From positions 1-20,996 of IMG/VR virus record IMGVR_UViG_3300042523_000711: a DNA stretch of 20,996 nucleotides. One strand, given 5' to 3'. Below, one piece after another: positions 1,074 through 19,866 of the stretch; within the stretch, counting starts at the first letter, position 1; the number at the start of each line of letters is the position of its first letter. The notes under the pieces were generated by a model. That model was not told where the DNA came from, ran no database searches, and saw nothing but the letters and a program-made list of their open reading frames with translations. The position numbers were made by a program, and so were the translations under genes. Source of the stretch: a virus.

Positions 1074-4000
1074 TTATTCCATATCTTTTCTAGCCGAATT
1101 ATATGAAGTAATCATACCACCCCCTCTCTCATCATATGCTCTGAATGAAAGTTTCCATAATTTTAAATTAGGAGAACCCGAATCGGTAGATGAGTGATAA
1201 ACCCCCTTATCATCAATTAATTGGTGATTATGCTCTATTGAATTCAATCCGTTTGAAGTATTTAATGTTGCCGCAAAACACATACCTGTCATTAAATTCA
1301 TAGGACCTCCTAACAATGCTGCTGAATTATCTTTGCCATATTCTTTAACAAATGAATTTACATTAAACAACTTTTGCATATCTTTTGCAAACTTTTCATT
1401 TAATGCTTTAACTTCTTTTAAATGTGGCACTAAATCTTTAAAGCTATTTACTTTATGTTTTTGTCTTAATTTTTCAATTGCTAATTTAGCTTTTTGCATT
1501 AAAGAATGAAAAGCTTCTATATCTTTTGGATTTTTTAAATGCTTAGCCATACCACTTTCTTTAAGCATTTTCATAAACTGCTTTTTATCATCTATTAAAT
1601 TATCCTTTATACCTAATGAATATCCATTAACACCAGGATGTGAATTATTTCTATCTCTATATTCAGGATTTGGGTGATAGTTTTGATATTGAGCACATTC
1701 ACCAGGGAATCCAAAGTTACCATATTTACCAGTGCTACCATACTTTACAGATACAGATGCTACCTTTTCTATTTTAGTTCCTTTTCTAGTTATTTTAATT
1801 TTATCACCGGATGGGAAATTTCCAACTGATGGTAAGTAACACTCATCACCTGCTGCTGTTTCCGTATCATACAATGCCATTTCTGCCCATTGTTTCATAA
1901 TTGAATTTGCAACTTGCTTATCCGAATTTTCTACTAAAGATTGTGCTACTTTAGAATAAGATGCACCTACTGCCGCTGATGCTTCTTTTGATGGAATTGT
2001 CATCTCATTTGCTATTCTTTGTAATTCCGCTTTATGAGTCTCAACCACTTTTCTAAGACCAGGTTTTACTTTTCCTTGTGATTCTAATATTTTTAAAAGT
2101 TCTATTGTTTTGTCTAATGCTTTATTTTTACTTACAGAATGTTGAAAATATACTTTTGCATTTTCACCACCAGCTCTACCTATTAATTTACCATCAGTAC
2201 CCAATGGACCATGTAGTTCATAAAATTTACCTTCCAAATAAGATAAGGGTTCTGTTTTAAATATATCAGCTACTAATGCATCATCTTTTGCTTTTGATTT
2301 ATCAGTTAAATCAGGTTTAGCTGAATCACCAAGCAATGCAGATACTTTAGCTCCACTTGCATCAGAACCACCTAATTTAACATTAGATGCTTTTTCTAAA
2401 TCACTTAATATAACAGAAGCAACGCCACCAACACCTAACATTTTTTTAGCTTCTTGATTAAAATCAAAAACACCAACATATAATTTTTGTTTATTATTAG
2501 ATCCTGATAATTTGTATTTTTCAATCAATGCCGTTGCTAACGCTGTTTTTTTCTTCTCATTAGTTTCTGCGTAAAATGAATTAATATCATCCATCATTGC
2601 ATTTGCTATTTTCTTTTGAGCTGGATTTAATGCTTTCATTCCTCTTTGATATGAAGATGATGCTTTAAGCTTATCTAAATTAGGTGATGTTGTTGCTTTA
2701 TTAATATTTTTTTCTTTATCCACTCTTGCTTTAGAATCCTTATCTTTAAACAAGCCAGCTCCCTTTATTGGCTCATCGGTTTTAGTATTGGTAGTATCTC
2801 CTTGTTTTGCTTTTAATTTTTTATCAACATCAACGTGAGAACCACTACTTATTGCAGCTTGCTTTTTCTCTTTACTACCAAAATATACTATCTTACCGTC
2901 TGGGCCACCTTTTCTTGCAGCCAATTTCCAATCACCAGTTGGTGTGGTTGCTTCATCAATAAACCCATAAATCATTTCTAACATTAACTCATGAGCTAAT
3001 TGCAAATTTTCTTCATTCATATAGTGTACATTTTCATTTTTCATCATGTTATTAACTAAATCAATATGCCCCTCACCTGCAATAGTAATTGGTATTTTAC
3101 CTTTTGCTTGCAATTCTTTTGTTTTCTCTAAAAGATTTTCATCTCTAGTCTCATTGAATGCAACTTGAATATCATTTATTTTAGTTTCTTTATCGCCCAT
3201 ATCGGCAGGGAATGATAATCTATAAAGGGTATCTACATCTTGGTCAGTTGGTTCATCCAAATTTTCTATCGGAGGGAACCCGGCTTCTTTAGCTGCATCT
3301 TGTAAGAATTGCTTACCACCTTCATCTAAGAATGTGCTAGGTTTCATAGTATCAGTCCACTCACCCTGTCCAATCATACTAGCCCAATTACCTGCATTAA
3401 TCTGTGATTGATTAAGACCAGTTTTCTCCATTTGTTTTTTATACAATTTAGATTCCGGTTTATGAACATCTAAATCATCACCATCCCATGTATCTATTTC
3501 CGCACCCAACTCCTTAAACTTTGGAGCTGCGTATTTCATTTCTTGATTAAATTCTAATTCACCTGTTTCTTTATTAGTTGCGCCACCTTCACCTACAAAT
3601 ACAATATCTTTCCATTTTTCTTGTGGTATCTTAGATTTAATATCATCTATTATATCATCAACCATTGCCGTATTGTCATGCTGCGTTCCATAAACCATAC
3701 CACCACCTTCCATTTCAATTGTTTGAATATCTTTGCCAGATTTCTTACCTTTAATAGTTTTTGATTCACCCTTCATACTTTTTATAGTTGATTTATCTTC
3801 GGTTGGGTTTGTGTTTGGTCTTGATGGTTCGTTTGCCGGTGGTTCTGCATTTGGCCCAGCTCCAGGTCCTGCTTGTTTACCACTTTTTGCTGCTACACCA
3901 AATTCACTTGCGAATTCATTTGATGTTTTTATAGCGTCATCAATTGGTTGGTCAATAATCATTACTTTCAATGGTATTGGCTTATCAGGATGCTCCATAT

Positions 4001-5396
4001 TATATCTTGTAATTGCTGCCCATCTATGATGCCCATCAACTACATATCCATCGTTACTTACAAAAATTGGTGCAAGTAAATTCTTTTTAGTTTTTTCATC
4101 TTTAACCTTTTGCTCTTCCGTTTTAGGAGAGCCATCAGGCATAGTATCTGCCATTGCTTCAGCTATTCCAGATTCCATACCCAATACTTTATCACCAACT
4201 AATTCATTTTGAGTTGCCTTTAAATTTTCAGATGGAACTTCTGCATCGGTTACTTTAATTCCTTTATCAGCCAACATTTGTCTAAAGTATGGTTCTCCCT
4301 CTGCTTCGGTAGCAGTTGGGTCTTTTTCTTTTGCTTTTTGTAACACATCCCATGCTTGAGAACCTTCAACAGGCTCACCTTTGAATTGTGGCATTTCTGC
4401 TCTTGGAATATTTTTGTTTCCATTACAAAACAAGTTTGAATTTGGAATTGATACTTTACATAAATTATATGTTGGTTGTTGATTCTTTTTTACTTCCTTA
4501 TCATATGCTGCTTTTTCTGGAGTACCTTTCTTCAATCCTTTAGCTTGCTCCTCACTATATCCCATTTTCTCTCTAGCAATACCTTCAGCCTTTTTTACAT
4601 CAGCTTTATGGTCCGCCCAATACTTATCCATTTCAGTAACCCTTTGCTTTAATAGATTACTATCAATATCATCCAGTCCAGGTTCGGTTTCAATTGTTGT
4701 TCCATCTACCTTACCATCTTTCTCAACACCCTTTTCATTTTGAGGTGGTGGGTTTGATGGTTCACTAAATTTACCATCTTCTTTTGGTACTTCTGCTGAT
4801 TTCTCTGCATCAGAATCTTCTTTATCTTTTTGTGCTAATTTATCATTTGCCGCTTTCTCTCTATCTAAACGAGCTCCCATAGCAGGGTCTACTTTTGGGT
4901 CAAACATAGCTTGTGCAGCTTTTGCTTTTTCTTCTTCACCACCTCCCGTTTCTCCTTCACCCTCTTTACCTTTCTCACCCTCTTTACCTTTCTCTTTATC
5001 ACCACCTGTACTCTTACCATCTTTCTCACTTCCTAAATCTTGCATTGCCGAATCTCTTTCTGGAGAACCTTCGGGTGGCATTAGTTTTTCAGCTGCTACT
5101 CTACCGGGACTATCTTTTGGTAATCTTAATAAGTTACCAACAATACCTGTTTTAGATGTACCATCTGCTCCTTTATATGGAATTTCTTTATTAAGAATTG
5201 GATTTGCAAATTTCTTATCAGCTTCTGTGATGTTTTCAAATAACTCATCTTTGATATTTGACAATCCCATTTCGGAAAGCACTATTGATAATTGGGCTAA
5301 ATGCTTTTTATTTTTTGGATTAGGTTGTCCATCATCCACTCTATAAGCCCATTCAAAAAGGATTTCGTTTATTAATTCAGATAAATTCATATTCAT
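1074..5396 (-). CDS. Giant multidomain phage protein (1,440 aa) with ParB/Srx-like and TraB/TIKI-like regions, probably virion-associated
   Basis: The N-terminus (residues 1-55) has EWAYRVDDGQPNPKNKKHL, a short module I recall from large proteins of marine tailed phages. Residues about 120-240 are low-complexity Glu/Lys/Gly linker. Residues 442-482 carry the ParB/sulfiredoxin-like signature GYVVDGHHRWAA. Residues about 562-790 look like the TraB/TIKI/EreA-ChaN fold, with VYGTQHDN, VFVGEGG and, after RDENLLEKTKELQAKGK, the motif GEGH at 774-777. The C-terminal third is Lys-rich and ends in a Cys/Gly/Tyr-containing globular region (about 1185-1440) that I cannot name. No signal peptide. The start ATG overlaps the stop of the nuclease gene by one base (TAATG), so the two are translationally coupled. 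Enzymatic activity of either domain is not shown. A structural or injected protein is the best guess from its size and its position between nuclease and lysis genes. Confidence 0.85.
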   Translation of the reverse strand: MNMNLSELINEILFEWAYRVDDGQPNPKNKKHLAQLSIVLSEMGLSNIKDELFENITEADKKFANPILNKEIPYKGADGTSKTGIVGNLLRLPKDSPGRVAAEKLMPPEGSPERDSAMQDLGSEKDGKSTGGDKEKGKEGEKGKEGEGETGGGEEEKAKAAQAMFDPKVDPAMGARLDREKAANDKLAQKDKEDSDAEKSAEVPKEDGKFSEPSNPPPQNEKGVEKDGKVDGTTIETEPGLDDIDSNLLKQRVTEMDKYWADHKADVKKAEGIAREKMGYSEEQAKGLKKGTPEKAAYDKEVKKNQQPTYNLCKVSIPNSNLFCNGNKNIPRAEMPQFKGEPVEGSQAWDVLQKAKEKDPTATEAEGEPYFRQMLADKGIKVTDAEVPSENLKATQNELVGDKVLGMESGIAEAMADTMPDGSPKTEEQKVKDEKTKKNLLAPIFVSNDGYVVDGHHRWAAITRYNMEHPDKPIPLKVMIIDQPIDDAIKTSNEFASEFGVAAKSGKQAGPGAGPNAEPPANEPSRPNTNPTEDKSTIKSMKGESKTIKGKKSGKDIQTIEMEGGGMVYGTQHDNTAMVDDIIDDIKSKIPQEKWKDIVFVGEGGATNKETGELEFNQEMKYAAPKFKELGAEIDTWDGDDLDVHKPESKLYKKQMEKTGLNQSQINAGNWASMIGQGEWTDTMKPSTFLDEGGKQFLQDAAKEAGFPPIENLDEPTDQDVDTLYRLSFPADMGDKETKINDIQVAFNETRDENLLEKTKELQAKGKIPITIAGEGHIDLVNNMMKNENVHYMNEENLQLAHELMLEMIYGFIDEATTPTGDWKLAARKGGPDGKIVYFGSKEKKQAAISSGSHVDVDKKLKAKQGDTTNTKTDEPIKGAGLFKDKDSKARVDKEKNINKATTSPNLDKLKASSSYQRGMKALNPAQKKIANAMMDDINSFYAETNEKKKTALATALIEKYKLSGSNNKQKLYVGVFDFNQEAKKMLGVGGVASVILSDLEKASNVKLGGSDASGAKVSALLGDSAKPDLTDKSKAKDDALVADIFKTEPLSYLEGKFYELHGPLGTDGKLIGRAGGENAKVYFQHSVSKNKALDKTIELLKILESQGKVKPGLRKVVETHKAELQRIANEMTIPSKEASAAVGASYSKVAQSLVENSDKQVANSIMKQWAEMALYDTETAAGDECYLPSVGNFPSGDKIKITRKGTKIEKVASVSVKYGSTGKYGNFGFPGECAQYQNYHPNPEYRDRNNSHPGVNGYSLGIKDNLIDDKKQFMKMLKESGMAKHLKNPKDIEAFHSLMQKAKLAIEKLRQKHKVNSFKDLVPHLKEVKALNEKFAKDMQKLFNVNSFVKEYGKDNSAALLGGPMNLMTGMCFAATLNTSNGLNSIEHNHQLIDDKGVYHSSTDSGSPNLKLWKLSFRAYDERGGGMITSYNSARKDME
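4958..4993 (-). repeat. Two perfect 18-bp tandem copies inside the giant gene
   Basis: Two exact copies of an 18-base unit (4958-4975 and 4976-4993) encode the repeated EKGKEG stretch of the low-complexity linker. The frame is kept, so copy number changes would only alter linker length. Confidence 0.8.
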
Positions 5397-5998
5397 TAAA
5401 ATTTGTGGTCTTTTGCTTCACATATCATTTCCAATTCTTCCCAAGAAAATTTAGGTTTTTCATTTAGAAATACATAACACTTCCATTTCTTTTGTTTTTC
5501 AAAATAGATGTGTTTTTGTAAGTGGGATGGAATTGCTGCTCCAGTTGCTACTTTTTTTACAGGTTTATCAAAGAATGTTTTTATTAGTACTGTAATATTT
5601 TCGGTATCATCCCATTTACGAATTTGTTCTTCCAACATTCTCCATTCACCTCTATTAAGATATTTGTCCTGCATTATACAATTTAGGTAAGAAAATGTTT
5701 GTTTTAGATTTACCATATTATCAGAAAATGTTGCCGCTGGTGCACCATGTCCTTTATCGTATATGTTTGCTTTGTAATCATCCGCATCTGATGTTTTGAT
5801 ATTTTCTTCTTTATAAAAATCCATTGTACCTCTATTCACATTTGTAGGACGGTTAATCGAACGGTATTTAATTATTAGGGGTTGTTCTAACGATTGTGAG
5901 TATAAAACCTCAAACACATCGTTTTTAATTCTTACATTCTGTCCAAAGGAAACCAAAGAAATGATTAAAAAACTAAAAAGAATAACGATTTTTTTCAT
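5396..5998 (-). CDS. Secreted DNA/RNA non-specific endonuclease (NUC1 / His-Me finger family)
   Basis: Predicted exported nuclease of 200 aa. Residues 1-20 are a signal peptide: MKK, a hydrophobic core, then SLVSFGQ, a form common in Bacteroidota. The mature part follows the NUC family: DKGHGAPAA at 81-89 is the DRGH motif with K for R, so H84 is the expected general base. Then come TFSYLNCIMQ with N106, a candidate metal ligand, and LNRGEWRMLEEQIRKW at 114-129. IPSHLQKHIYFE...WKCYVFLNE at 156-180 matches the family's substrate-side strand pair. The length is close to a minimal family member. The ATG at 5998 follows the ATATTTATA element by 24 bases, and its stop overlaps the start of the giant gene. 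The substrate is unknown: export suggests action in the periplasm or outside the cell, for example on incoming phage DNA. A virion role with a non-cleaved leader cannot be excluded. Confidence 0.9.
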   Translation of the reverse strand: MKKIVILFSFLIISLVSFGQNVRIKNDVFEVLYSQSLEQPLIIKYRSINRPTNVNRGTMDFYKEENIKTSDADDYKANIYDKGHGAPAATFSDNMVNLKQTFSYLNCIMQDKYLNRGEWRMLEEQIRKWDDTENITVLIKTFFDKPVKKVATGAAIPSHLQKHIYFEKQKKWKCYVFLNEKPKFSWEELEMICEAKDHKF

Positions 5999-6022
5999 AT
6001 TATAGCATGTTTTTGTATATAC

Positions 6023-6037: not shown

Positions 6038-7321
6038 TTATAGTTTTCCGTAATCCAAACCCCAACTTGCTTTTATCGGGAATCCACCATCCTCAATGAT
6101 TTCTTTCAATCCTTTAATCAATTCCTTATCAACATCAGTAGGAACATCAAAAAGAAATGAATCATATGTGTACAGGCAAAAGCTGATTCCGCTTCCTCCA
6201 ACATAATCCAATACCCGTTTCATCTTATCCACATTCATTTCAGTTTCTATCGCTTGAAGTAGATAGTTAAATACTTTTTGTGGGTTAGGTTGTTCTATCC
6301 AGCTCAATGGGATTTCTCTATGTGGTGTTTGTAAGTATCCGTTCTTTTGTGTTTCAATCCATAACTCATCAATGTAATCAGCTACCGCATTAAGATATGG
6401 AATTTGTCTGAAGTCATCATCAATACCACCATATAGTAAACGGAACGTAATTCCCTTTCCCTCATTCACATCACATCCATATTGTTCAGCTAACCACTCA
6501 TGCACATTACCTTCCGGCATATCGAACTTAATCAACTTACCAATCAATCTAGGGTGATATGCGTTATAATCCATTTGTAGGAATATCCCATCCGATACAA
6601 AACATTCTCTACTACCATCGGTTTTATTGAGGGCGGCATAGTTCACACCACCATGTCTATTGGATGGTCTACCTGTCACCGTAAATGGATTGTACTCCGT
6701 AAACACTAAGTTATCGGGTGAAAGCTGTTTGGAAGCTTGAGGCCATCTATCAATAAATTTTTTCCCATCGACACGGATTCCCATTTGTTCAATTCGGGCT
6801 AAGGTTGGTATGAATATATCATTATACCAATTATAAGTTTTAGATTTCTGATTGATGGATTTACCAAATTCGTTCTCAATTGCTTCACACAATTTGAGAA
6901 TGGGAATGGATTGAATGATGTTCTCTTTGTAACCCTTATGAATAAAGGGAGCCACTAAGTTTTGTATTGGTTGAGAATAGTCTATTGTTTTACCATGCTT
7001 TAAGAAGTAAGCAGTGTCAACATCATTCAAGCCTTCCCTTACATCCGTAAAAGATTGTAGTAGCTTTTTCTTTTGGAATACCCATTTTTCTCCGGCAGTA
7101 TTCAACACACTAGCTATTTGCTCATTAGAGAGTGATATAGCGTCTGTATGTTGTTGTGGTAGTATATACTTGTCCGATTGGGTTCTAACGAATATAAACG
7201 ATATATGAGTGTTATTAGGGTGATTATCATTATCTACCCACATAGGATACCAAATGGAAGCTTCGGTCTCCAGCTTTACACTCAATTCGTTTAATTCATC
7301 AATAGACTCAACAATTATCAT
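6038..7321 (-). CDS. Short family A DNA polymerase, 427 aa, without a recognisable proofreading motif
   Basis: Template-directed DNA polymerase of the PolA fold, probably the phage replication or repair enzyme. Numbering from the ATG at 7321: TVTGRPSN at 214-221 matches the TGRLSS thumb/palm motif. Motif A is MDYNAYHPRL, with D251 as metal ligand and H where Pol I has E710. Motif B is GKGITFRLLYGG, with K289, F293 and Y297 in the Pol I spacing but no Arg at the usual K-4 place. Motif C is TYDSFLFDVP, with D387 kept and S replacing the following Glu. The first 150 residues resemble a shrunken exonuclease region, but I see no DxE motif. At 427 aa it is well below the usual 600-900. A TTG nine bases upstream (7330) could extend it by three residues; ATG is preferred because the TTG lies in a likely promoter box. 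A PolA rather than PolB enzyme is unlike T4. Confidence 0.85.
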   Translation of the reverse strand: MIIVESIDELNELSVKLETEASIWYPMWVDNDNHPNNTHISFIFVRTQSDKYILPQQHTDAISLSNEQIASVLNTAGEKWVFQKKKLLQSFTDVREGLNDVDTAYFLKHGKTIDYSQPIQNLVAPFIHKGYKENIIQSIPILKLCEAIENEFGKSINQKSKTYNWYNDIFIPTLARIEQMGIRVDGKKFIDRWPQASKQLSPDNLVFTEYNPFTVTGRPSNRHGGVNYAALNKTDGSRECFVSDGIFLQMDYNAYHPRLIGKLIKFDMPEGNVHEWLAEQYGCDVNEGKGITFRLLYGGIDDDFRQIPYLNAVADYIDELWIETQKNGYLQTPHREIPLSWIEQPNPQKVFNYLLQAIETEMNVDKMKRVLDYVGGSGISFCLYTYDSFLFDVPTDVDKELIKGLKEIIEDGGFPIKASWGLDYGKL

Positions 7322-7327
7322 AGGATA

Positions 7328-7359
7328 CAAAGATACAAAAAAAATCCCAAACTACCAAA
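7328..7359 (-). promoter_or_regulatory. Possible Bacteroidota host-type promoter for the polymerase gene
   Basis: The coding strand holds TATCTTTG (7335-7328), a match to the Bacteroidota -7 box TAnnTTTG, and a TTTG (7359-7356) 20 bases upstream as a -33 box. Transcription would begin close to the ATG at 7321, giving little or no leader. It overlaps the tmRNA terminator. The sequence is short and T-rich, so chance is a real possibility. Confidence 0.35.
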
Positions 7360-17529: not shown

Positions 17530-19806
17530 TTATGCGTTGAAAGATGCTCCCGTTGGTAAGATGTTGAAATCAATTACGATGAATTCAGCCGTCTTTGCCG
17601 GTTGTAAGAACACTTGTCCTGCTAATACATTTCTATCGATTACATCCGGTGTGTTGTTAGTTTCATCCATTACAACTTTGAATGCGTATAAACCTTGTCT
17701 TTGTTGGATAGCCTCTAAATAAGGGTTTACAGTGTTTAAGAAACGAGTTCTAGTTGTAGATGTATTTTGTTCGAACACTAAATAACGAGATGTTGAAGCG
17801 ATGAACTTCTTCATTGTGATAAGTAATCTTCTTACATTGATTCTATCTAATGCTGAAGCCTTATCTTGCAATGTCTTCTGTCCGAATGCTACAATACCTT
17901 GTCCAGGGAATGCTGCGATTGGGTTTACTTTGTTCTCATATAGAGTGTCTCTCTCTGCATGTGTTAATCTATTCAATACACTAACTGCTCCAGTGATACC
18001 ACCTCTATTCAAACCAGCCGGTGCGAACCACTCTGCCGCCAATCTATCATTACTTGCGTAAACCGCTGGTAATAATACGGATGGAGGAACGATTGTTAAT
18101 TTGTTTGTATTTGTATCAATTGTTTTAATCCAAGGATAGTAAGTACCAACATAATTTGAATCTACTCCTTGTGCTTTTTCAGTTACATCTGCAATTGTTG
18201 CATCATAATCAGAAAATTCAGCTATGTAGAATGCATCTTGTCTATCTTCAACCATATCAATAACTGCTTGAACAGCTGCTGGATGGCTTTGATAGTTTAG
18301 ACCCGGTGTTACCACCATATTGATATCCCACTCATCAGGATTAGAAATTGCGTTAATTGCTTTTGTATATGCTGCTGAACCAGATGCTGCTGAAGTTGAA
18401 CAATTGAATCCTTGCTGATTTGCATTGTTCCAATTTGCATCACCAGCTTTAGCTATTGGTGTGATTGGGTTAGTACCATCAAAACCTTGTTGGAATGCTA
18501 ATACAAATTGTCTCTTAACCATATCAACTGCTTTTGAACCAGTCATTTGGTATGATAATTGAGAATCAAATCCGAAAACAACGTTTGAACCTGATACTGC
18601 TTCATTAGGAATTGGTTTTAAGTATTGAGCGTTATCAATTGATACACCCTCACCTTCAAAATCAAATCCACTATAATAGATTGGAGAACCAGCTGTGTTA
18701 GCTGCTGAACCTGTTTGATATACAACTGCAGGTACTTTAGTTACATCACCAGCTGCTGTTTCAATTGGATTTATATATGCGGCATGTCCGAATGGTGCTG
18801 CTGATATAGGATATGAACCAGCTATTGCTACGTCAACTCTTACATATTTTGATTTGTTAGCGTAATCACCATTTTGTGTGATTTTACCAGCAGCATCAAT
18901 TGTAATATAAGAATCACCCATTCTTCTAGCTATAAAGTTTGGAGAAGCAGGGTCTAAGTTTACATTGTTAAATGTTTCAACAACACTCTTTCTCTTATCA
19001 ATATCAGAATAACTTCTAATAGTTACAGTAAAAGTTGAATAATCAGTACCGCCATCTTCACCAGCTGCCTTTACATTAGAAATACCAACTTTAAATTTAG
19101 TATTATAATTTGCACCATCACCTAAAGTTACAAATTTGAAAAGGTCATATCTTACACCACTAATCAATTGAGAGGTAACCATTGGAGTTTGTGCAGGTTG
19201 TGCATCAAATGTATAAACCTGTGTAGGTAATACAATACTAGATATACTAGCGGTTGGTAAACTATTTGCTGCATTTTCAAAGTAAACATAAGTGTATGCT
19301 TCTTTTGGTCCAAGTGGAGATTCACCAAATACATCTGATAAATCATTTGTAGCTGATGTTACTGTTGATGCTGATACATTCGTTGCACTACCGGTTGCTC
19401 CAGTAATTACAAATGAACCAGATGTACCAGTTGCACTTCCTCCAGTAAAACCATAGTTTTGGAATCCGTTTGAAGTTGAGTATAATACACCAGCTATTTT
19501 ACCGCCAGCAACTATTGCCAATGGTGCTGCTTGGTAGTATCCTCCGATACCTGCAACTCTTACGATAGTAGCTTGTCCAGCTTCTCTTAAATAATTTTGT
19601 ACTGCGTATTCAGTATAATATGTTCCGTCTACTTTACCGAACTTTTCCTCAAATTCTGATTGAGTTGTTACGATTGTAGGTACAAATGCAGGTCCTTCTT
19701 TTAGAGGTCCTATAAATGCTGCTCCGATTTCACCGATTCCTTGAGAAAGGAATGATAAATCGTTTTCTCTAGTAAATACACCAGGGGATACAATTCTTTC
19801 TGCCAT
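17530..19806 (-). CDS. Contractile tail sheath protein (gp18-like), 758 aa
   Basis: Subunit of the contracting outer tail. The N-terminus RIVSPGVFTRENDLSFLSQG, then GAAFIGPLKEGPAFVPTIVTTQSEFEEKFG, is the sheath family opening. Residues about 100-430 are Ser/Thr/Gly-rich inserted, surface-type beta domains. The conserved C-terminal core has LNRLTHAERDTLYENKVNPIAAFPGQGIVAFGQKTLQ, then INVRRLLITMKKFIASTSRYLVFEQN, and ends GQVFLQPAKTAEFIVIDFNILPTGASF. It is about 100 residues longer than T4 gp18 (659). The frame is open up to a TTG at 19857, but the ATG at 19806 is chosen: it has GGAG at a good distance and gives the family's usual start (MAERIVSPG). It follows a terminator and an ATATTTATA element with a longer, roughly 60-base leader. 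Confidence 0.96.
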   Translation of the reverse strand: MAERIVSPGVFTRENDLSFLSQGIGEIGAAFIGPLKEGPAFVPTIVTTQSEFEEKFGKVDGTYYTEYAVQNYLREAGQATIVRVAGIGGYYQAAPLAIVAGGKIAGVLYSTSNGFQNYGFTGGSATGTSGSFVITGATGSATNVSASTVTSATNDLSDVFGESPLGPKEAYTYVYFENAANSLPTASISSIVLPTQVYTFDAQPAQTPMVTSQLISGVRYDLFKFVTLGDGANYNTKFKVGISNVKAAGEDGGTDYSTFTVTIRSYSDIDKRKSVVETFNNVNLDPASPNFIARRMGDSYITIDAAGKITQNGDYANKSKYVRVDVAIAGSYPISAAPFGHAAYINPIETAAGDVTKVPAVVYQTGSAANTAGSPIYYSGFDFEGEGVSIDNAQYLKPIPNEAVSGSNVVFGFDSQLSYQMTGSKAVDMVKRQFVLAFQQGFDGTNPITPIAKAGDANWNNANQQGFNCSTSAASGSAAYTKAINAISNPDEWDINMVVTPGLNYQSHPAAVQAVIDMVEDRQDAFYIAEFSDYDATIADVTEKAQGVDSNYVGTYYPWIKTIDTNTNKLTIVPPSVLLPAVYASNDRLAAEWFAPAGLNRGGITGAVSVLNRLTHAERDTLYENKVNPIAAFPGQGIVAFGQKTLQDKASALDRINVRRLLITMKKFIASTSRYLVFEQNTSTTRTRFLNTVNPYLEAIQQRQGLYAFKVVMDETNNTPDVIDRNVLAGQVFLQPAKTAEFIVIDFNILPTGASFNA

Positions 19807-19812
19807 GTTATT

Positions 19813-19818
19813 TCTCCG
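19813..19818 (-). promoter_or_regulatory. Ribosome binding site CGGAGA deciding the sheath start
   Basis: CGGAGA lies 6 bases before the ATG at 19806 and supports that start over the TTG at 19857. It is one of the few clear Shine-Dalgarno sites in the window, fitting a highly made protein. Confidence 0.65.
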
Positions 19819-19866
19819 ATTATTATGTTTTAAAATGCTAATATTGAGTATGTACAATATTACCTA

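What the first reader, a model, noticed from the sequence alone, without database searches (positions are those of the whole stretch)
1074..5396. 1,440-aa protein joining ParB/Srx-like and TraB/TIKI-like regions
A GYVVDGHHRWAA block and a separate region with GTQH, VGEGG and GEGH motifs are joined by low-complexity linkers, with an unnamed C-terminal domain rich in conserved-looking Cys, Tyr and Gly. Such a combination suggests an injected effector or multifunctional virion protein and is not a standard structural subunit.
Basis: partly seen in the sequence, partly recalled or inferred. Interest (0 to 1): 0.6.

Follow-up and report, generated by a model that had tools for sequence, protein, structure and literature searches.

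The report
Modular phage effector with swappable nuclease-like tail
This large protein of an uncultured T4-like phage looks like a multi-part cargo protein: a short front tag that probably loads it into the virus head, two conserved enzyme-like domains, and a rear part, probably a DNA-cutting domain, that is exchanged between otherwise near-identical phages; it may be injected into the host with the phage DNA, but packaging, injection and activity are all untested.

Summary
The ORF and motifs are real: minus strand 5396..1074, 1,440 aa. It belongs to a family of modular phage proteins found in viral metagenomes; I collected about 100 relatives. Order in the window: N-terminal tag (1-45) in a conserved block (1-130), low-complexity linker, ParB/sulfiredoxin-like domain (315-514), TIKI/TraB-like domain (535-803), variable C-terminus (883-1440). 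ParB/Srx is supported by a confident AlphaFold2 model with sulfiredoxin, Noc and phage ParB/Srx matches. TIKI/TraB rests on His/Glu/Arg/His spacing, strand order and a weak profile match; no structure or family model confirms it. At least eight C-terminal clusters occur; several carry a D...SxK pattern resembling PD-(D/E)xK nucleases. N-termini, including unrelated tags on stand-alone versions, carry the L/I-x-E motif cut by T4 prohead protease (21/24 versus 26% of other ORFs), and 7 of 16 long relatives encode that protease. Best explanation: a head-packaged, probably protease-processed and injected effector with a swappable nuclease, like T4 internal proteins crossed with phage polymorphic toxins. 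Packaging, cleavage, injection and nuclease activity are inferred.

The parts
1074..5396 (-). 1,440-aa modular protein, ATG at 5396, stop 1074-1076
   Evidence: relatives
5262..5396 (-). N-terminal tag, residues 1-45 (SELINEIL.EWAYRVDDG.PNPKN..HL..L..VL.EMG), with L/I-x-E sites; capsid-targeting-like (inferred)
   Evidence: Conserved block (1-130) in 52 proteins; tag also in Flavobacterium phage immuto gp078, E 6e-10 with a profile lacking it, and in uncultured jumbo phage LR756508; L/I-x-E enrichment
5007..5396 (-). Conserved N-terminal block, residues 1-130
   Evidence: 94-96% identical in L001/L002, 69% in L004
4455..5006 (-). Charged low-complexity linker, residues 131-314
   Evidence: Sequence; alignment
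3855..4454 (-). ParB/sulfiredoxin-like domain, residues 315-514
   Evidence: conservation; AF2, most blocks pLDDT 75-93; human sulfiredoxin 3cyi prob 0.85, Noc 7ol9 prob 0.82; viral ParB/Sulfiredoxin E 9e-15; SerK motif match E 0.02
4014..4037 (-). DGHHRWAA motif, residues 454-461
   Evidence: D454-A460 invariant in 42 non-redundant members
2988..3794 (-). TIKI/TraB-like domain, residues 535-803
   Evidence: conservation; most blocks pLDDT 90-98; weak profile match to TraB/GumN family; TIKI 2His/2Glu description
3678..3689 (-). GTQH, residues 570-573, candidate catalytic His573
   Evidence: G570 and H573 at 95% of 40 members
3582..3596 (-). VGEGG, residues 601-605, candidate catalytic Glu603, 30 residues after His573
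   Evidence: G602-G605 at 100% of 40 members
3066..3077 (-). GEGH, residues 774-777, candidate catalytic His777, 26 residues after invariant Arg751
   Evidence: G774 and H777 at 100% of 40 members
2949..2960 (-). Candidate internal prohead-protease site IDE|A, residues 813-816, at the boundary between constant and variable parts
   Evidence: junction enrichment of [LI]xE[AGSD] (26 of 48 stretches, shuffled mean 8.9, maximum 18)
2736..2927 (-). Short boundary module, residues about 824-887 (KLAARK...GKIVYF...SGSH), also in other proteins of these phages
   Evidence: (L001 alignment)
1077..2750 (-). Variable C-terminal region, residues 883-1440
   Evidence: Absent from relatives with near-identical flanks; only other copies found in L161/L193-L195, 48% identity
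1743..1883 (-). PD-(D/E)xK-like core, residues 1172-1218: E1172, G1183, P1189, D1198, S1216, K1218
   Evidence: Invariant in the 17-row alignment with cluster-1 C-termini; profile match P 1.5e-5, Prob 79%; low-confidence model puts them in a helix-strand-strand-strand order

Best explanation
A head-packaged, multi-domain effector of a T4-like phage, probably infecting Bacteroidota. Proposed working: (1) the N-terminal tag recruits the protein into the prohead core, as the 10-residue capsid-targeting sequences of T4 internal proteins do; (2) a gp21-type prohead protease removes the tag and may cut at L/I-x-E sites between modules, so the protein acts as a polyprotein and the nuclease is released only inside the head, away from phage DNA replication; (3) the pieces are ejected with the DNA; (4) in the new host the ParB/Srx-like domain acts on nucleotides or DNA, the TIKI/TraB-like domain hydrolyses a peptide or ester target, and the C-terminal domain cuts nucleic acid. 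The C-terminus is a cassette exchanged by recombination, like the toxin domain of polymorphic toxins. Shown: modules, conservation, permutation, C-terminal replacement, ParB/Srx fold (model), protease gene in related genomes, statistical enrichment of the cleavage motif. Inferred: packaging, cleavage, ejection and all enzymatic activities.
For: C-terminal swap: L001/L002/L003 have flanking endonuclease, 143-aa and endolysin genes 83-99% identical, N-tag, linker and ParB 94-100%, TraB-like 86-87%, and no match to the window's C-terminus. 78 C-termini fall into 8 multi-member clusters plus 5 singletons. Modules are permuted (tag-ParB-TraB or tag-TraB-ParB), fused alone (L055) or single genes (L019, L051, L058, L073, L086). 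L/I-x-E in the first 20 residues: 21/24 non-redundant N-termini versus 57/221 other ORFs, Fisher p 4e-9, shuffles mean 11, maximum 18; motif and CTS biology from PMC9026906. Prohead protease Peptidase_S77 in 7 of 16 long relatives, 0 of 14 control genomes. Nuclease-like core shared with cluster-1 C-termini. Cultured Flavobacterium phage immuto has a tag protein, gp078, with an E..D..ExK pattern, three genes upstream of the terminase gene.
Against: No proteomics. The window fragment does not include head genes, and 9 of 16 relatives (fragments) showed no protease. The gene sits between tail and lysis genes, not in the head cluster. The C-terminal model is poor (pLDDT 52), its Foldseek matches are meaningless, and no Pfam, PHROG, NCBIfam or PADLOC model names any C-terminal cluster tested as a nuclease. 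The TIKI/TraB assignment lacks a fold match. The L/I-x-E tests do not fully correct for relatedness, and such short motifs are easily met. In jumbo phage LR756508 the tag protein at the same gene position has no ParB, TraB or evident nuclease part, so the tag may primarily be structural.
Confidence: 0.55

Rival explanations
1. A virion structural or prohead-core protein whose tag and acidic linker are the functional part; the ParB-like, TraB-like and C-terminal modules are accessory or relict and need not be injected.
For: In jumbo phage LR756508 the syntenic tag protein is tag plus acidic low-complexity tail only. Tag proteins vary from about 350 to 2,447 aa.
Against: Catalytic-type residues in the ParB-like and TraB-like modules are near-invariant over large divergence and dN/dS is low, not expected of relict domains. 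Stand-alone versions of both modules exist.
Confidence: 0.2
2. A cytoplasmic late or counter-defence protein, not packaged: the nuclease-like C-terminus acts in the producing cell against host DNA or co-infecting phages.
For: Nuclease-like motifs. Upstream gene is a separate Endonuclease_NS protein, so nuclease function is a local theme. Cassette exchange between phages fits phage-phage competition.
Against: N-terminal L/I-x-E tags of several unrelated sequences on fused and stand-alone versions, with the matching protease in related genomes, are unexplained. The neighbouring 143-aa gene is 97-99% conserved beside different C-termini in L001-L003, so it does not look like cognate immunity.
Confidence: 0.15
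3. The C-terminal exchange is driven by homing-type mobility of the nuclease module itself rather than selection for effector diversity.
For: C-termini look nuclease-like; one cluster (L146, L185) has an HNH-like motif by eye; sharp replacement between conserved flanks.
Against: The modules stay in frame at the end of the same conserved protein and replace one another; an empty form was not found among the full-length close relatives. No family match to homing endonucleases.
Confidence: 0.08

Closest known systems
Polyvalent proteins of phages and conjugative elements (Iyer et al. 2017, PMC5512222), DdrB-like ParB proteins in particular
   Same: Large multi-domain phage protein joining unrelated enzymatic domains including a ParB/Srx domain; predicted to be packaged and injected.
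   Different: That paper does not mention TraB, TIKI or EreA and states its proteins do not follow the constant-N / variable-C toxin layout, which this family does. No zincin metallopeptidase domain was found here.
MuF polymorphic toxins of temperate phages (Jamet et al. 2017, PMC5576092)
   Same: Phage-encoded protein with conserved virion-associated N-terminus and variable, often nuclease, C-terminus, proposed to be delivered by the phage.
   Different: No MuF domain hit; found here in T4-like phages with a gp21-type protease rather than Firmicutes temperate phages; no small cognate immunity ORF that changes with the C-terminus (89% of MuF toxins have a small downstream ORF).
T4 internal proteins IPI-IPIII and Alt with capsid-targeting sequences (PMC9026906, PMC9958956)
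   Same: Short N-terminal tag with L/I-x-E, gp21-type protease in related genomes, late gene, lineage-variable cargo.
   Different: Much larger, multi-domain; tag sequences differ from T4's; candidate cleavage sites also at internal module junctions; packaging not shown.
TIKI/TraB/EreA superfamily enzymes
   Same: GTxH...E (30 residues), long helix with Arg, then GxGH 26 residues after that Arg, the same Arg-His spacing as in a TraB/GumN protein counted by hand (L265).
   Different: Below detection for Pfam TraB (best member E 0.066), no listed PDB fold match, no cellular homologue found in the collection of 84,980 genomes.

Membership tests
ParB/sulfiredoxin superfamily | ParB/Srx alpha+beta fold | tested here: met
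   AF2 model with most blocks pLDDT 75-93; Foldseek: sulfiredoxin prob 0.85, Noc prob 0.82, though PDB E-values are 0.1-0.3; viral ParB/Sulfiredoxin E 9e-15
ParB/sulfiredoxin superfamily | Conserved active-site motif with Arg (here DGHHRWAA) | tested here: met
   D454-A460 invariant in 42 non-redundant members; ParBc_2 and DUF1015 weak hits in about half the members
TIKI/TraB/EreA superfamily | Catalytic 2His/2Glu-type residues in the common core | tested here: inconclusive
   H573, E603 and H777 near-invariant with fitting spacing; the Glu two residues before the first His in RRSP is Thr571 here, as in the TraB/GumN motif GTxH; description from PMC6254334
TIKI/TraB/EreA superfamily | Recognisable fold or profile match | tested here: inconclusive
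   No significant Pfam, PDB sequence or listed PDB fold match (top 50 shown); profile comparison P 0.009, above 31 controls
PD-(D/E)xK nucleases | Core helix with Glu, then strands with Asp and (E/D/Q/S)xK | tested here: inconclusive
   E1172, D1198, S1216-x-K1218 invariant in 17 sequences; order of elements seen only in a low-confidence model
PD-(D/E)xK nucleases | Nuclease activity | not testable with these tools
   Needs purified protein
Polyvalent proteins | Two or more unrelated catalytic-type domains in one phage polypeptide | tested here: met
   ParB/Srx-like plus TraB-like plus nuclease-like modules; activities inferred
Polyvalent proteins | Packaged and injected with DNA | not testable with these tools
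   Only indirect: tag motif, protease in relatives
Polymorphic toxins (MuF type) | Constant N-terminus with replaceable C-terminal domain | tested here: met
Polymorphic toxins (MuF type) | MuF domain next to portal gene | tested here: not met
   No MuF hit in Pfam; gene lies among tail and lysis genes
Polymorphic toxins (MuF type) | Adjacent immunity gene | tested here: not met
   Downstream 143-aa gene is conserved regardless of the C-terminal type in L001-L003
T4 CTS-bearing internal proteins | N-terminal L/I-x-E within the first residues | tested here: met
   21/24 versus 57/221 background
T4 CTS-bearing internal proteins | Prohead protease gp21 homologue in the same genome | tested here: inconclusive
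   Present in 7 of 16 related records and in immuto; the window fragment does not reach the head genes
T4 CTS-bearing internal proteins | Presence and cleavage in the virion | not testable with these tools
   Needs virion mass spectrometry

The most novel reading that the evidence does not exclude
T4-like phages of Bacteroidota run a capsid-delivered polymorphic effector system: a capsid-targeting tag and a ParB/Srx plus TIKI/TraB-like chassis carry interchangeable nucleases as a polyprotein that the prohead protease cuts into separate injected enzymes, with the first TIKI-superfamily hydrolase packaged in a phage head.
Probability: 0.3. Interest if true: 0.78.

Novelty: new variant of a known kind. 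Interest (0 to 1): 0.6.

Why it matters
Injected head proteins are well studied in only a few phages (T4, P1, N4 and some giants). This family gives a recognisable tag, present in at least one cultured phage, by which such cargo can be sought from sequence alone; a natural set of interchangeable C-terminal domains to screen; and a testable idea that the prohead protease activates effectors by cutting a polyprotein. The TraB-like domain was found in none of 50,697 phage records or the genome collection searched, so it may be an undescribed enzyme family.

Tried and rejected
(1) Pfam, PHROGs, NCBIfam and PADLOC on the whole protein: only phrog_2859 (unknown function, 366-498) and weak ParB-type hits. 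(2) Homologues of the window's C-terminus in viral contigs: none from the single sequence, only the L161 lineage with the alignment; none in phage records. (3) TraB-like homologues in bacterial genomes and phage records: none. (4) Pfam TraB by six-frame search in 28 records: none; single E. coli YbaP profile comparison: none. (5) A first comparison with TraB proteins used wrong frames; repeated correctly. (6) AF2 of the C-terminus: low confidence; Foldseek of it gave GPCR and 14-3-3 noise and was discarded. (7) Assembly chimera as the cause of the C-terminal swap: rejected, since several independent contigs carry each of the larger C-terminal clusters and the flanks are continuous. (8) The 143-aa neighbour as cognate immunity: rejected. 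(10) Profile comparison of the window C-terminus, or cluster 1, with cluster 0: no match, so common ancestry of all D..SxK C-termini is not shown.
Full report
Setting. The window is a 20,996-bp IMG/VR viral fragment. On the minus strand it runs from tail sheath (17530-19857) and tube through baseplate-type genes, a 430-aa DNA polymerase fragment, a secreted-looking Endonuclease_NS protein, the target, a 143-aa gene and an endolysin cut by the window edge. The closest annotated sheath proteins are from Microcystis phage Mel-JY01 and the T4-like Flavobacterium phage immuto. The immuto similarity and its Flavobacterium host suggest, but do not prove, a Bacteroidota host.

The observation. The ORF is real, 5396..1074 minus, 1,440 aa, and all quoted motifs are there. 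Homologue searches with the whole protein and with three module alignments gave about 100 distinct proteins. Module detection over them: 52 with the N-terminal block, 84 with the ParB-like, 62 with the TraB-like module, and only two (window, L161) with the window's C-terminus. The quoted motifs coincide with invariant columns, and simple Nei-Gojobori dN/dS between the window and L001, L145, L164 or L161 is 0.10-0.49 per module.

Modularity. The two central modules occur in both orders, fused to each other alone (L055, 573 aa), or as separate genes (L019, L051, L058-L060 TraB-like; L073, L086 ParB-like). Some proteins start with a nucleotidyltransferase-like domain instead of the EWAYR tag (L037: CTP_transf_like E 3.5e-6). 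Between the window and L001, L002 or L003, the flanking endonuclease gene is 91-94%, the 143-aa gene 97-99% and the endolysin 83-99% identical; N-block, linker and ParB are 94-100% and TraB-like 86-87%; residues 883-1440 have no counterpart. 78 C-termini form 8 multi-member clusters and 5 singletons. This is the constant-front, exchangeable-rear layout of polymorphic toxins.

ParB-like domain. AlphaFold2 of residues 315-803 with 49 sequences gave mean pLDDT 84, most ParB blocks 75-93 and TraB-like blocks 90-98. Foldseek finds human sulfiredoxin (prob 0.77-0.85) and the ParB-like Noc (prob 0.82), with PDB E-values that are not significant on their own (0.1-0.3), and many viral proteins named ParB/Sulfiredoxin (E down to 9e-15). 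By sequence the best PDB relative is free serine kinase SerK, also through DGHHRWA.

TraB-like domain. Order in the model: three strands ending in GTQH, helix, strand ending in VGEGG, helices, long helix with invariant R751, strand, GEGH, helix. H573 to E603 is 30 residues; the His-Glu pairs of the TIKI-superfamily proteins Bcr135 (His-85/Glu-113) and RRSP (His-3902/Glu-3930) are 28 apart (PMC6254334). R751 to H777 is 26, the same as in a genuine TraB/GumN protein (L265, sequence, counted by hand). Profile comparison with 36 TraB/GumN sequences aligns exactly this segment, P = 0.009, score 24.5, against at most 21.7 in 30 column shuffles and one reversal. Against this, Pfam TraB reaches only E 0.066 in 2 of 40 members, there is no PDB sequence match and no listed PDB fold match. 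I treat it as TIKI/TraB-like, not as a proven member. No homologue was found in 50,697 phage records or in the genome collection.

C-terminal domain. It matches cluster-1 C-termini by profile (P 1.5e-5, Prob 79%), and in the joint alignment E1172, G1183, P1189, D1198, S1216 and K1218 are invariant, the E...D...SxK pattern of PD-(D/E)xK nucleases. The model is weak (pLDDT 52) but places E in a helix and D and SxK on consecutive strands. Other clusters show similar D...SxK or SLK patterns by eye but are not demonstrably related to it. One cluster looks HNH-like by eye (L146). No database names any tested C-terminus a nuclease. Nuclease function is therefore a reasoned guess.

The tag and delivery. 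T4 gp21 cuts after L/I-x-E, and ten N-terminal residues of IPIII suffice for targeting to the head (PMC9026906). Among 24 non-redundant N-termini of this family, of several unrelated sequence types (EWAYR tag, MIKLKSLLKE type, nucleotidyltransferase type), 21 have L/I-x-E in the first 20 residues, against 57 of 221 other ORFs of two related genomes (p 4e-9) and at most 18 in 1,000 shuffles. Sites of the form [LI]xE[AGSD] follow the ParB or TraB-like modules in 26 of 48 junction stretches, shuffled mean 8.9, maximum 18 of 2,000; in the window this is IDE|A at 813-816. Some residual relatedness remains in both tests. Peptidase_S77 (gp21) is present in 7 of 16 related records. In immuto, gp078 bears the tag (E 6e-10), lies three genes upstream of the terminase gene, followed by portal, prohead protease and major capsid genes, and carries an E..D..ExK pattern. 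In jumbo phage LR756508 the gene at the same position has the tag and only an acidic tail, a reminder that the tag may be structural first.

Mechanism, with status. Recruitment to the prohead by the tag: inferred. Cleavage by gp21 and possible release of modules: inferred from motif statistics. Ejection: inferred by analogy with T4 IPs and Alt. ParB/Srx acting on nucleotides or DNA: from family knowledge (PMC5512222). TIKI/TraB-like hydrolysis: inferred. Nuclease: inferred. Cassette exchange: shown at sequence level.

Comparison. It works like polyvalent proteins and like MuF polymorphic toxins, and its delivery would be like T4 internal proteins. It lacks the MuF domain and a cognate immunity gene, and Iyer et al. 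state their polyvalent proteins do not follow the constant/variable toxin layout. I therefore call it a new variant of a known kind, interest 0.6.

Noticed in passing
window 6038-7330, minus strand: A 430-aa C-terminal-type fragment of family A DNA polymerase sits inside the tail/lysis gene cluster; a similar gene lies at the matching place in relatives and in jumbo phage LR756508, and a family A polymerase gene is also the first gene of the immuto record.
   Followed up: no
window 5396-5998, minus strand: Secreted-looking DNA/RNA non-specific endonuclease (Endonuclease_NS E 3e-18) directly upstream; replaced by a protein only 25-28% identical in L004 and L148 while other flanking genes stay conserved.
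   Followed up: partly
L002 14007-15902; L001 7294-8025; L003 14024-14860: The slot after the endolysin is a second variable cargo position: proteins starting with a short tag and a TGKLVYF-type module; the L002 one (632 aa) has ADP-ribosyltransferase-like motifs by eye, no Pfam hit.
   Followed up: partly
L037 4582-8661, L050, L067, L068, L116 and G011:90097-94566: Related proteins (in G011 and G013 just upstream of the terminase gene) start with L/I-x-E and a nucleotidyltransferase-like domain (GRFQPFHKGH) and can end in a ligase-like EKTDGQ motif (seen in L037), with ParB and sometimes TraB-like modules between.
   Followed up: partly
L146 8419-9963 and L185: C-terminal cluster with an HNH-like pattern (LDHHVPYS...SPENWDLMETPLNQLK), not recognised by Pfam.
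   Followed up: no
L010, L017, L041, L056 around locus position 6000: ParB and TraB-like ORFs are adjacent and appear separated by a frame change or internal start; could be a sequencing error or a programmed frameshift.
   Followed up: no
L295 4532-5593 (Flavobacterium phage immuto gp078, YP_010114605.1): Cultured-phage hypothetical protein with the same tag and a canonical-looking E..D..ExK nuclease motif; a laboratory-tractable member.
   Followed up: partly
L297 4337-5410 (uncultured jumbo phage LR756508): Tag protein at the same gene position with only a long acidic low-complexity tail.
   Followed up: partly
L058 1654-3849, L060 3195-5477: Phages with a stand-alone TraB-like gene carry a separate tag protein of over 700 aa just upstream, with SLK-type or YSLSNKK-type C-termini like those fused elsewhere.
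   Followed up: partly
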